Assembly: GCF_001423405.1 (NCBI RefSeq)
Contig: NZ_LMNS01000002.1
Location: 103,516-167,515 of the forward strand
Reading direction: 5' to 3'
Source of the DNA: Methylobacterium sp. Leaf123
GTDB taxonomy: Bacteria > Pseudomonadota > Alphaproteobacteria > Rhizobiales > Beijerinckiaceae
DNA length: 64,000 nucleotides
Of the stretch, positions 32,923 to 39,771 are shown piece by piece. The number at the start of each line of letters is the position of its first letter. The first letter of the stretch is position 1. Under the pieces are notes generated by a model. That model was not told where the DNA came from, searched no databases, and saw nothing but the letters and a program-made list of their open reading frames with translations. A program made the translations under genes and the position numbers.

Positions 32923-33405
32923 CCGCGACGGCCCTCAGGGGGGTCGGGGCCGGGACCAGCCTCCGCGCCGACGTGACGCGGTTTTCGGTGGCGCGCGGCT
33001 GCGCCCGATCCGGCCACGGCCTACGGCTGTGATCGTGAGGCGCCCTTCCCGTTGAGCGAATTCCGCGAGTATCGCTTCGATCCATGTCGCAGCGTACTTC
33101 GCCGATGCGTTTTCGGCCGGATCATCCAAGCCACAGAAACCCGCGCAACCTCACGGCCATCTCGATCACGGTCAGCCACAACCCGACGCCCTATGAGGCA
33201 AGTCTTCTCAATTCAGCACATTGCTGGCGAAAACACAGCAATAAAACCAGGATATACTATAAAATATTCGGTCATCACCCTTTAATTATCAAAAGTTTGA
33301 TGCTCGCTTGATCAGAAAGAAGCCTGTTGCCAAAGGGGCTGGCGACTCGCGTTGCGCGGCAAATCTGTTAAAAAAGCAGTAAGCACGCGAATTCGTCGTG
33401 TGGTC
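32923..33405. other. Gap without recognisable gene; A+T-rich part at about 33190-33310
   Basis: The first half has ordinary G+C and only short open frames. From about 33190 the sequence becomes strikingly A+T-rich, with TATACTATAAAATATT near 33251-33266 as a possible promoter core for the downstream coiled-coil genes. I see no RNA gene. Confidence 0.5.
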
Positions 33406-34971
33406 ATGGGAAAACACACCGCGATGGCTTGGATGCCGTTCCGAAACGTGCTGCCGACGTCATCCGCCTCACGCGACCGAGACGCGGAACAACGGTCGCG
33501 CAACCCGGAGCCGCCCCCCTCGCCGCGGCTGCCGAAGGCCGTCGTCCCCGACCTGATGGAGGGCGGCAGACGCGCCCGCTCGGCCCCCGAACCCGCTCCG
33601 ACCAACCTCGATGCCATCGGCCAGCGGGACGAGGTCGTCCGGCAGCGGATCGACGCCATGGTCGGCCGCCTGGACGACCTGCGAAGCCTCCAAGACGATT
33701 TCGTGCTGATCCTGCAGCCGCTGGCGAGCATCAGCAGCGAGCTGTCCAAGGCCAGCGTGCGGATCGCCGAGCTTGAGAACACGCTGACGCAGGAGGTCAG
33801 CGCCAACGGCAGCCTGCGCGACGAGGTGGCCGATCTCTCCACCAAGCTGTCGCGGATGAACAGCGAGCTGGCGGATTCCCAGGTTCACGCGAAGCGAACC
33901 CTGGAAAGCCTGCGCGAGCGCGATGCGGCGGTCGAGGCGCATCAGATCGATCTGCGCGACAAGGTGTCGGCGATCGAGAATCTGGAGCGCCAGCTCTTTT
34001 CGGAGGTCGAGCAGAACAAGGCGCTGACGAGCGAGAGCCGGGCGCTGCGGCAGGAAGCGCAGGCCGCCGACAGCGCCCTGGCGCGTTCCGAGCACGAGTT
34101 GAACAACGTCCGCGAAAGAAACAGCCTGCTGGAGGTCGACGGACGCCGGCTCCAGCTTCTGAGCGAGGAGCAGGCGACGCAGCTCGCCGATCTCGATGCC
34201 CGCCATCGCGACCTGACGACCACGGCGGAAGCCGACCGGCAGCGCCTGCGCATCGTCGAGACCCAGCTCGCGACCGAAATCTCCGTGAGGGAGCGCAACG
34301 AGGCCCAGCACGAAACCGAGCTATCCGCGCTCCGAAACGATCGCGCCAGCCTCGCGATGAAGCTCGAAGCCGCCCTGAACCGGGCGACCTCGACGGAGCA
34401 GCTGCTGGTGCAGGCCCGCAACCAGTTGCGGGACAAGGACGAGGAATTCCGTTCGGTCGATCGCAACTTCAAGGAAGCGACCATCGCGCGCAGCACGCTG
34501 GAACGCCGCCTCGAAGCCCTGCAAGCCGACCTGTCGCGTCAGACCGAGCGGTTCCTGGAAATCCAGCGCATCCGCGGCGAACTCGACAGCCGTTGCGACA
34601 TGCTCAACAAGGCGCTCGCGGCCAAGGATGCGGCGATCGAGCAGACGACGAACCGCAACGCGGTTCTCAACGATCGCATCGAGCACCTGACCCACCGGCA
34701 CGAAGCCGCCCGCGCCGATCTCGAAGCCTCCAATCGAAGATTGATGGAAGAACTGCAGAACGAGCGCTCGGAGCGCGCGTTGCTGCAAGGCGCCCTCGAC
34801 ATCGCGCGCGAAAGCCGGGTCACGCTGCAGAAGCAGCACGATGCCCTGAAACGCTCGGGCCGCCCGTGGCGGGAGCAGGTGAACGACGAGCTCGACGAAG
34901 AAACCGCGCAGGCCGCGGCCGACGCGGTGAGCAACGTTCGTCCGTTCAGCTCCACGGGCAAGTCGGCCTAG
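33406..34971 (+). CDS. Long coiled-coil protein, unknown function
   Basis: About 521 aa from the ATG at 33406 (an in-frame TTG is at 33352 and another ATG at 33424). A Pro/Arg-rich N-terminal 70 residues is followed by almost continuous heptad-patterned helix from about residue 80 to 500, rich in Leu, Glu, Arg and Ala. The C-terminal tail reads SNVRPFSSTGKSA. There is no membrane segment. The composition recalls crescentin-like or polar scaffold proteins, but no signature proves it. Its TAG stop lies in the CTAG that begins repeat A2. Two smaller coiled-coil genes follow on the same strand. Confidence 0.8.
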   Translation: MGKHTAMAWMPFRNVLPTSSASRDRDAEQRSRNPEPPPSPRLPKAVVPDLMEGGRRARSAPEPAPTNLDAIGQRDEVVRQRIDAMVGRLDDLRSLQDDFVLILQPLASISSELSKASVRIAELENTLTQEVSANGSLRDEVADLSTKLSRMNSELADSQVHAKRTLESLRERDAAVEAHQIDLRDKVSAIENLERQLFSEVEQNKALTSESRALRQEAQAADSALARSEHELNNVRERNSLLEVDGRRLQLLSEEQATQLADLDARHRDLTTTAEADRQRLRIVETQLATEISVRERNEAQHETELSALRNDRASLAMKLEAALNRATSTEQLLVQARNQLRDKDEEFRSVDRNFKEATIARSTLERRLEALQADLSRQTERFLEIQRIRGELDSRCDMLNKALAAKDAAIEQTTNRNAVLNDRIEHLTHRHEAARADLEASNRRLMEELQNERSERALLQGALDIARESRVTLQKQHDALKRSGRPWREQVNDELDEETAQAAADAVSNVRPFSSTGKSA

Positions 34972-35074
34972 AGCCGCATCCGACCTGATGGCATCAGGCC
35001 GGTGTCTCTAGGCCCTTATTCTGACGTGCATTCTTTCGACGAACCAGTCACCATTTCGTCGGAATGCGCTCTAG
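34968..35074. repeat. 107-bp CTAG-bounded palindromic repeat, copy A2
   Basis: Second copy of the element at 3462-3568, same length and inverted CTAGAGC/GCTCTAG ends. The long hairpin arms are at 35026-35046 and 35055-35069. Differences from copy A1 are concentrated in the loops and the central spacer, while the arms are kept, which suggests that the structure matters or that the element is recent. Confidence 0.85.
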
Positions 35075-35115
35075 TTCGCCGTTTCACGGCAAAGAAGATT
35101 CGGGAGGATGTTTGA

Positions 35116-35601
35116 ATGTCAGAACAGGCCGTGAAAGACGCCGCCCCTTCCTCCGGCAATTCCATTCTCATGCGGGCTTGGCAGGCCAATGTGACGCGAC
35201 CGGGAGACAAGATCATCAACTTCTCGCCAGCCACCTCCGATTCCGCCTCCGACGGGGGCGCCGCCTCCCTGCCGCCACGCGACTGGGTCTCCGCGATCGA
35301 CCTCGTGCAGGAGGCCGCCGAAGCGATCCGGATCAGCGAAGAGCGCGCCGTCGATCTCGAGAACCAGCTGCGAAGCGTCATTACCCAAGCTGAGGACGAG
35401 GTGCGGCAGCTTCAGAAGACGCTCGCCTCGAACCAAGTCCTGCTGAGCCAGGCCGAGGACCGCGCCCGCCGCGCCGAGGCGCGGGCCAAGGAGGCGGAAA
35501 CCTGGCTGGTCCGCATCTATGACGCCGTGTTCACGGCCTTCGGTTCGAAGAACAAGGCCGTCCCGGCGGAGACCGGCGACAGCGGACAGGACGCGCCGTA
35601 A
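35116..35601 (+). CDS. Coiled-coil protein, second of three
   Basis: 161-aa soluble protein. The first 55 residues are Ser/Pro/Asp-rich and probably disordered. A coiled coil covers about 58-140 (WVSAIDLVQEAAEAIRIS to AEARAKEAETW), followed by WLVRIYDAVFTAFG. The end is acidic. A GGAGGATG ribosome-binding sequence precedes the ATG. The C-terminal helix plus the aromatic IYD..F motif is repeated in the next gene (LLAFIYKTFNV), so the two are probably paralogues. It lies 18 nt before the third gene. Function unknown. Confidence 0.75.
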   Translation: MSEQAVKDAAPSSGNSILMRAWQANVTRPGDKIINFSPATSDSASDGGAASLPPRDWVSAIDLVQEAAEAIRISEERAVDLENQLRSVITQAEDEVRQLQKTLASNQVLLSQAEDRARRAEARAKEAETWLVRIYDAVFTAFGSKNKAVPAETGDSGQDAP

Positions 35602-35618
35602 GGCGTGAACGCGTTCCG

Positions 35619-36125
35619 ATGGACCTCGACAGCCCATATCCAATCGCCAGCGAGAGCGGACCGCCGGTCCAGCCCTCCGAATGGGCCCTGTTCGACGTCG
35701 AGGTCAGGCACGACGACGCAGTGGGCCTGGTGAAGCAAGCCGCGGACACGATCCATGACTTGCAGCGCTGGAAGGAGATGATCGAGCCGCAGGCGCTGAA
35801 CCTGATTCAGAGCGTCCAGCAGGAGCGCGTCCGGTGGCAATCGGAACGATCGGCGCTGATGAACGAAATCAACGAGTGCCGGCTGACGATCACCGCGACG
35901 AAGATGGCCCTACGAACGGCGCTGTCGGAAAAGGAGACCCTGTCGCGTCGCTATCATGAGGCGAAAGCGGCGGCGGCCTCGTCCGAGACGCGCGCCCGCG
36001 CGGCGGAGGAGCTGCTCGCCTTCATCTACAAGACCTTCAACGTCGAGCTGAGCGCGCATCCGGTCACAGGACGGATCGCCCCAATCCCCTTCGATCCCGC
36101 CGGCCAGCGCCCCTCGCCCGAGTAG
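35619..36125 (+). CDS. Coiled-coil protein, third of three, related to the previous gene
   Basis: 168-aa soluble protein. A short N-terminus is followed by helix from about residue 28 (HDDAVGLVKQAADTIHDL) to 145, with the pattern RARAAEELLAFIYKTFNVEL near the end, matching the AEAR..EAETWLVRIYDAVF block of the upstream gene. The last 25 residues are Pro-rich. Start spacing of 17 nt from the previous stop suggests one operon. It has no homologue I recognise. Confidence 0.75.
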   Translation: MDLDSPYPIASESGPPVQPSEWALFDVEVRHDDAVGLVKQAADTIHDLQRWKEMIEPQALNLIQSVQQERVRWQSERSALMNEINECRLTITATKMALRTALSEKETLSRRYHEAKAAAASSETRARAAEELLAFIYKTFNVELSAHPVTGRIAPIPFDPAGQRPSPE

Positions 36126-38896: not shown

Positions 38897-39771
38897 GGGC
38901 GTGTGGACATTTACCGGAGCCATAGGACGATGGCGGCCAGCGTGACGACGGCAGCATAGTTGCGCGCGGTCTTCTCGTATCGGGTGGCGACGCGGCGGAA
39001 CTGCTTGAGCTTGGCAAAGCAGCACTCGACCAGATGGCGCTCTTGGTAGAGCGTCTTGTCGAGATCGTACTTCCTGGCGCGCGAGGGATTGTTCGGGATC
39101 ACGGCCTTTGCGCCCTTATCGGAGGCGAGCTTGCGCAACCGGTCGCTGTCGTAGGCGGCATCAGCCAAGATCACGTTGGCCGGTAGGTCCTTCAGCAGCA
39201 TCTCGGCCTGCGGTGCCTCGCCTTTCTGGCCGGCTGTGAGGGTAAAACGCACCGGGCAGCCGAGCCCGCGCACTGCCAGATGGATCTTGGTGCTCAGGCC
39301 GCCACGTGAGCGGCCGAGCGCCTGATCCGGCCCTGGCTCGGACAAGGGGCGATCTCCAGCCCCCCTTTTTTCGCGCCCGCCGCATGTTGGTGGGCGCGCA
39401 CAATGGTGGAATCCACAATCAGATACTCGAAGTCGGGATCGTCCGACATCGCCGCGAAGATGCGCCACCACACGCCCTTCCGGCTCCAGCGGCTGAAGCG
39501 GCGGAACACGCTGTTCCACTCGCAGAACGCCTCAGGCAGATCGCGCCAGGGCGAGCCGGTGCGCACGAGCCACAAAACGCCTTCGACGAACATGCGGTTA
39601 TCGCGCCCGGTCGAGCCACGCTGATCGGGACGACCGATGATCAGCGGCGCCATCCGCTCCCACTGCGCGTCGCTGAGAACAAGGCGATCCTGAACGCTCA
39701 AGGCTGTCCTCCAAAAGACAGCTTTGAATCACGGCTTACTCAACGCGTGAACACCAAGAGTCCACGCGGCC
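38897..39771. mobile_element. IS5-family (IS427-type) insertion sequence, complete
   Basis: 875-bp element. Ends are imperfect inverted repeats: GGGCGTGTGGAC at the left and GGCCGCGTGGAC (complement) at the right. Both ends abut CTAG (38894-38897 and 39771-39774), so a TA duplication within a CTAG target fits the family. The transposase is encoded on the minus strand in two overlapping frames. It is inserted directly beside palindromic repeat B copy 2. Confidence 0.88.
38911..39701 (-). CDS. IS5-family transposase made by programmed frameshift
   Basis: The N-terminal frame is 39701 to 39294 (MSVQDRLVLSDAQWERMAPL), and the C-terminal frame ends at 38911. They join through A6G6 at 39360-39371, a slippery run typical of the IS427 group, giving about 262 aa. 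The DDE residues are visible: Asp in FEYLIVDSTIVRAHQH, Asp in NVILADAAYDSDRL and Glu in RHLVECCFAKLKQFRRVATR. Both frames look intact, so the element may still be active. OrfA contains the helix-turn-helix-like N-terminus and OrfB the rest of the RNase H-like domain. Confidence 0.88.

What the first reader, a model, noticed from the sequence alone, without database searches (positions are those of the whole stretch)
33406..36125. Three-gene coiled-coil cluster of unknown function
A 520-aa coiled-coil protein is followed by two smaller proteins that share a C-terminal aromatic motif (AE..LxxIYxxF). None has a signal or membrane segment. An A+T-rich stretch with a possible TATACT core precedes the first. 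The set looks like a cytoskeletal or polar scaffold system not described to my knowledge.
Basis: inference. Interest (0 to 1): 0.75.

Follow-up and report, generated by a model that had tools for sequence, protein, structure and literature searches.

The report
Crescentin filament gene with travelling partners
Three neighbouring genes in a Methylorubrum-like bacterium encode a relative of crescentin, the filament protein that bends Caulobacter cells, and two small coiled-coil proteins, the first of which sits directly behind the crescentin gene in all 37 genomes of its genus that have one and is likely its working partner, in a genome where no MreB gene was found.

Summary
It matches Pfam Rod_CreS at 411 bits, cut-off 100. 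A profile of 15 relatives finds solved Caulobacter crescentin at E 2.5e-45, with the same rod spacing and the same register shifts, including the known stutter. Crescentin-like proteins in this order, one of which restores curvature in Caulobacter, are published (PMC12700997).

New is gene 2 (P2). All 37 of 111 genus genomes with crescentin carry P2 directly downstream; of the 74 others one has strong P2, on a contig that ends 123 bp upstream of it. P2 follows crescentin in eight genera of the family. A genome of another family, found through P2 alone, has the whole crescentin-P2-third-gene unit. In eight genomes of one genus P2 lies between genes resembling the two halves of crescentin. One crescentin genus (g118) lacks P2. 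The genome shows no MreB.

I read the set as a crescentin cytoskeleton with dedicated small coiled-coil partners; the partnership is inferred, not shown.

The parts
33424..34971 (+). Gene 1: crescentin-family protein, 515 aa from the conserved ATG (521 aa from ATG 33406)
   Evidence: Pfam Rod_CreS 411 bits over profile 1-359 of 359; profile of relatives matches PDB crescentin, E 2.5e-45; register shifts shared with crescentin; start codon by conservation
33424..33456 (+). Conserved head start MAWMPFRNVLP, candidate membrane-binding segment (inferred)
   Evidence: W..F and basic residues recur at the start of related proteins; membrane binding by the first 27 residues is published for Caulobacter crescentin (PMC10873595), not tested here
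34929..34946 (+). Crescentin tail motif SNVRPF (position by codon count from the translation)
   Evidence: N[VI]x(1-2)[FLI] in 34 of 34 tails of the clade against 5 of 26 elsewhere; pattern chosen after seeing the tails
35116..35601 (+). Gene 2 (P2): 161-aa single-helix protein, co-inherited with gene 1
35619..36125 (+). Gene 3 (P3): 168-aa coiled-coil protein, fast-evolving, likely distant paralogue of P2
   Evidence: found in 19 of 21 genus loci; alignment A3; dN/dS 0.20-0.46
33220..33340 (+). A+T-rich upstream stretch with TATACT at 33253-33258; promoter role not supported by the scan

Best explanation
Gene 1 encodes a crescentin-family protein, and genes 2 and 3 likely encode small coiled-coil partners that would co-assemble with it into a membrane-attached, cell-shaping filament. 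Shown here: gene 1 is a crescentin homologue with the same rod spacing, the same register shifts and conserved rod-end motifs; P2 is inherited with it, directly behind it, in every genus genome that has it; no MreB homologue was found in the genome. Inferred from Caulobacter crescentin: the rod dimerises and polymerises into a stable filament under the membrane, attached by the short head, and biases wall growth so that the cell is curved or skewed. Inferred for P2: its 87-residue helix would pack along the crescentin bundle and set its length, width or attachment, while its disordered N-terminus and the crescentin tail (SNVRPF) would contact another component, possibly the polar growth machinery, because the MreB link discussed for Caulobacter is missing.
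For: Gene 1. Co-inheritance of P2: strong P2 (135 bits or more; next best match 55 bits) in 38 of 111 genus genomes, being all 37 with crescentin plus one on a contig that ends 123 bp upstream of P2, always same contig and strand. Family: 30 of 397 genomes hold P2 at 110 bits or more, 22 directly behind crescentin and 8 in a cluster with crescentin-half genes. Stop-start overlap of crescentin and P2 in L082, L083 and L116. Outside the family, P2 alone led to a crescentin-P2-third-gene unit in G1070. The crescentins of G1070, G433 and G503 branch among Methylobacterium ones, so the unit has most likely moved as one piece. Published: a crescentin homologue of this order restores curvature in Caulobacter.
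Against: No contact between P2 and crescentin has been shown. P2 is absent from most crescentin genomes of the family (93 of 116 have no strong P2 and no cut-off copy), including all g118 genomes with crescentin, so crescentin does not need it everywhere. Weaker P2 relatives stand alone without crescentin, one in the own genome. P2 and crescentin profiles are not related to each other. The P2 profile was built from copies next to crescentin, which biases it towards that subfamily. Whether the three genes are one transcript is untested; 144 bp separate genes 1 and 2 in the window.
Confidence: 0.6

Rival explanations
1. P2 would be an antagonist or assembly regulator of crescentin, not a structural subunit: a short helix that caps or dissolves filaments so that shape can be changed.
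For: P2 is a short single helix strictly linked to the crescentin gene; too much crescentin assembly is harmful in Caulobacter (PMC3087291, passages).
Against: Nothing here separates a regulator from a subunit; the split-crescentin genomes keep P2 in the middle of the cluster, which fits either.
Confidence: 0.2
2. The set would be a polar or division-site scaffold that has kept the crescentin fold but lost the curving role.
For: The host order grows from the pole and is called MreB-less (PMC10259793, passages); no MreB found in the own genome.
Against: Crescentin homologues of this order occur in curved species and one works as a curver in Caulobacter (PMC12700997).
Confidence: 0.12
3. P2 and P3 would be unrelated neighbours that stay with crescentin by linkage only.
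For: Linked inheritance alone gives co-occurrence in related genomes; P3 evolves fast.
Against: P2 stays directly behind crescentin in eight genera and in one other family, while genes further out differ between the loci read; it also stays beside crescentin-half genes.
Confidence: 0.08

Closest known systems
Crescentin (CreS) of Caulobacter crescentus, Pfam PF19220, PDB 8afl and others
   Same: Rod homologous over about 419 positions with one small gap, same register shifts including the stutter, rod-end motifs AIGQ and GAL..AR..R..LQ, disordered head and short tail.
   Different: Followed by P2 and P3; no MreB found in this genome. Whether Caulobacter creS has such neighbours was not examined; the P2 profile search of the protein collection gave no hit named from Caulobacter.
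Crescentin-like proteins of Hyphomicrobiales (PMC12700997, passages read)
   Same: Same family and order; that study defines the group by PF19220.
   Different: The text passages I saw name neither Methylobacterium nor Methylorubrum (0 occurrences) and speak of no crescentin partner gene; its supplements were not available.
Eukaryotic intermediate filament proteins (lamins)
   Same: Head, coiled-coil rod and tail layout; lamin A/C matches the family profile weakly (27 bits).
   Different: The lamin score is no better than those of myosin and other coiled coils in the same list, so no kinship is claimed.

Membership tests
Crescentin family (gene 1) | Match to PF19220 above the curated cut-off over the full profile | tested here: met
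   411 bits, cut-off 100, profile 1-359 of 359
Crescentin family (gene 1) | Significant profile match to Caulobacter crescentin itself, above the coiled-coil background | tested here: met
   158 bits, next PDB protein 31 bits
Crescentin family (gene 1) | Stutter at the place of crescentin 406-409 | tested here: met
   Same register change near 405-413 in the family mean and the window protein as in crescentin; the unmutated crescentin scores above the stutter-less mutant, 158.5 against 152.5 bits. The window protein also shows a short excursion at 136-156 that crescentin does not.
Crescentin family (gene 1) | Long continuous rod with short disordered head and tail | tested here: met
   One helix 72-483 in the single-chain model, mean pLDDT 74
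Crescentin family (gene 1) | Membrane-binding head | tested here: inconclusive
   A basic, aromatic head start is conserved; binding not tested, and the first 24 residues of Caulobacter crescentin were not in any alignment seen
Crescentin family (gene 1) | Filament formation and cell curvature | not testable with these tools
   Needs experiments; shown by others for a different homologue of the order
Outer membrane efflux protein / TolC (a database name for P2) | Match to the family model over most of its length and a fold with a beta-barrel part | tested here: not met
   22.6 bits, just over the cut-off of 22, but only 68 of 187 profile positions; model is a single helix without strands
Phage tape-measure protein (gene 1) | Match to a phage tail family, or phage genes nearby | tested here: not met
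   PHROGs gave one match of unknown function at E 0.0059 for gene 1 and none for genes 2 and 3; the neighbouring genes tested are not phage genes. A distant phage origin of crescentin is proposed in PMC12700997 and is not excluded.

The most novel reading that the evidence does not exclude
A multi-component bacterial intermediate-filament system: crescentin with an obligate small co-subunit (P2), working without MreB, and in one related genus taken apart into two crescentin-half proteins with P2 between them, so that the filament is built from several different subunits.
Probability: 0.3. Interest if true: 0.82.

Novelty: new variant of a known kind. Interest (0 to 1): 0.62.

Why it matters
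Crescentin is the best-known intermediate-filament-like protein of bacteria, yet I know of no dedicated, co-inherited partner gene for it, and how it acts in cells without MreB is open. P2 is a concrete candidate partner in a genus with harmless laboratory strains, so both questions become directly testable. The split form in g98 asks whether a crescentin filament can be assembled from pieces.

Tried and rejected
Rejected: that gene 1 is an unknown coiled coil; that it is a recognisable phage tail protein; that P2 is TolC-like in spite of its database name; that P2 is a duplicated piece of the crescentin rod.

Not used as evidence: in G571 (L121) the crescentin C-half and P2 read as one frame, but the join lies at a proline-rich run where a frame error is easy. 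A V..[FL]-like motif in the P2 N-terminus and the crescentin tail was looked for after the fact, is loose, and was met in 10 of 15 P2 rows. The N-half genes of g98 score modestly (10.7-31.4 bits; heptad-permuted versions reach the real score in 1 of 150 for two of eight, in none for six); the frame of L120 looks disrupted. The C-half is clear (27.7-63.7 bits; 0 of 150 permuted versions for all eight).

Not done: the creS neighbourhood of Caulobacter (no handle for that genome; the one scan of named genomes was used). Rows dropped: L077 from the crescentin tree, because its frame holds a stop; L067, L076 and L097 from the source list, which made no difference to the 34 profile rows. The protein-collection search with A1 scored only 7,992 candidates.

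Full report
Observation. The start of gene 1 is better placed at 33424, where ATG followed by MAW or MGW is kept in all 7 aligned rows (window and 6 relatives), giving 515 aa. dN/dS is 0.05-0.24 for gene 1, 0.05-0.32 for gene 2 and 0.20-0.46 for gene 3 (five, five and four relatives), so all three are protein-coding, the third under the weakest constraint.

Gene 1. Pfam Rod_CreS matches at 411 bits over its full length. phmmer against the PDB finds only crescentin, 45 bits. A profile of 15 relatives (A2) finds it at 158 bits, E 2.5e-45; the next PDB protein has 31 bits. The unmutated crescentin sequence scores above the mutant in which three added residues remove the stutter (158.5 against 152.5). 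A register scan shows that crescentin changes heptad register near residues 262 and 412, and that the mean of 30 family sequences changes near 263 and 405-413 in the same way; the window protein changes near 255 and 413, with one extra excursion at 136-156. The later shift is the published stutter, 406-409 (PMC10873595, passages read). AlphaFold2 gives one helix, 72-483, with loose ends. Membership in the crescentin family is firm by sequence; filament formation and curvature are not tested.

What is in print. PMC12700997 (passages read) reports crescentin-like proteins from 13 Hyphomicrobiales families and shows that the one of Chelatococcus reniformis restores curvature in a Caulobacter creS mutant. 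PMC4448529 (one passage) says that crescentin homologues are present in Methylobacterium. Library searches for crescentin with Rhizobiales (11 papers), with Methylobacterium (1), with 'homolog' and 'coiled-coil' (40, 30 listed), with Methylorubrum (0), and with 'interacting protein' and 'partner' (12) showed no title or abstract start on a co-inherited small partner gene; most of these papers were seen as listings only, and the library lacks most subscription journals.

Distribution of PF19220 at the thresholds used: 37 of 111 genus genomes, 116 of 397 family genomes, 2 of 150 order genomes including the own, 1 of 385 class genomes, the own, and 1 of 18 in the family of G1070.

Gene 2 (P2). 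Apart from a 22.6-bit match to Outer membrane efflux protein, just over the cut-off of 22 and over 68 of 187 positions, no curated family passes its cut-off; that match probably explains the database name 'TolC family protein'. From 61 regions (60 fetched loci, and the window) P2 homologues were collected, and 15 copies next to crescentin were aligned (A1): RDW..ALDLI.EA..AIR..EER at the start of the helix and AE.WL.R.HD....F at its end, with a length difference of seven residues between rows, as in a coiled coil. The model is one helix, 57-143.

Co-inheritance. A whole-genome search with A1 found strong P2 (135 bits or more; the next match has 55) in 38 of 111 genus genomes: all 37 with crescentin, each on the same contig and strand directly downstream (172-313 bases from rod end to match start), plus G185, whose contig ends 123 bp upstream of P2. 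In the family, 30 of 397 genomes hold P2 at 110 bits or more: 22 directly behind crescentin, in eight genera (one of them, G304, with a stop inside the crescentin frame), and 8 of genus g98 described below. Against this, 93 of the 116 family genomes with crescentin have neither strong P2 nor a cut-off copy. In the crescentin tree (61 rows) the 29 rows with P2 lie in one clade of 34 (100/100); its other members are L072, cut off by its contig end with a P2 fragment seen, and four g118 loci that lack P2. The other 26 loci in the tree have none.

Test outside the family. In 347 order genomes A1 found two genomes outside the family. In G1070 (126.6 bits) a crescentin gene (Rod_CreS 377 bits) ends 7 bp before P2, and a third small gene overlaps the end of P2 by 4 bp; it matches the iterated P3 and P2 profiles at 33 and 30 bits. 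G1129 (94 bits) has no crescentin match in the 13 kb read. The G1070, G433 and G503 crescentins branch among those of Methylobacterium, so the unit has most likely moved between genera and families as one piece. A caution: A1 was built from copies next to crescentin, although the searches covered whole genomes.

Weaker P2 relatives occur without crescentin, for instance next to a glycosyltransferase gene in the own genome (L002) and in L137. The family is wider than crescentin; the subfamily of gene 2 is the crescentin-bound one.

Gene 3 (P3). It is found in 19 of 21 genus loci read (not in L110 and L116) and in L058 and L077, with 21-25% identity between the window copy and six distant ones. 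Iterated profiles suggest kinship to P2; the window copy alone does not reach significance (E 0.07).

Split crescentin. In L119-L126 (8 g98 genomes without a PF19220 match at the threshold) P2 is preceded by a gene of 248-300 codons (one cut by me at 265) that matches the crescentin profile from position 284-308 to 470-484 of 514, end motif included. It is followed, after a small coiled-coil gene, by a gene whose product matches the N-terminal two thirds of the profile, in three of eight only in part. Against heptad-permuted nulls the C-half is clear in all eight (0 of 150), the N-half moderate (none in six, 1 of 150 in two). G503 of the same genus has intact crescentin, P2 and P3.

MreB. PF06723 gives three matches in the own genome: 55 bits in a gene that is Hsp70 (942 bits), 44 bits in one that is FtsA, next to FtsZ, and 26 bits, under the cut-off, in a gene not examined. 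The order is called MreB-less in PMC10259793 (passages).

Mechanism. By homology gene 1 likely forms a stable filament bound to the membrane through its head and shapes the cell. P2 is likely a co-assembling partner. Its place on the filament, and any role of the crescentin tail motif (34 of 34 tails in the clade, 5 of 26 elsewhere, pattern chosen after seeing them), are inference. Rivals are a regulator or antagonist, a polar scaffold, or mere linkage.

Novelty. Gene 1 is a new member of a known family. The conserved partner gene, the travelling three-gene unit and the split form are, by the searches named and to my knowledge, undescribed; together they make a new variant of a known kind.

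Noticed in passing
L119-L126 (eight genomes of genus g98): Crescentin appears to be split into a C-terminal-half gene before P2 and an N-terminal-half gene after it; another genome of the same genus (G503, L058) has intact crescentin, P2 and P3.
   Followed up: partly
L059 (G347, g113): Two full PF19220 matches lie head to tail about 560 bases apart; G300, G334 and G417 also hold a second match elsewhere.
   Followed up: no
L002:1267-1884 (own genome, contig C12): A P2 relative (34% identity over 111 residues) stands next to a glycosyltransferase gene, without crescentin; a similar arrangement is in L137.
   Followed up: partly
L111, L116, L068, L072: Several further P2-family genes flank crescentin on either strand, up to five P2-family frames per locus at E below 1e-10, as if the family multiplies around it.
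   Followed up: partly
L077 (G304, g97): The crescentin frame holds an in-frame TGA while P2 behind it is intact.
   Followed up: no
window 38911-39701, - strand: An IS4/IS5-type transposase in two overlapping frames (DUF4096, then DDE_Tnp_1), about 2.8 kb downstream of gene 3.
   Followed up: no
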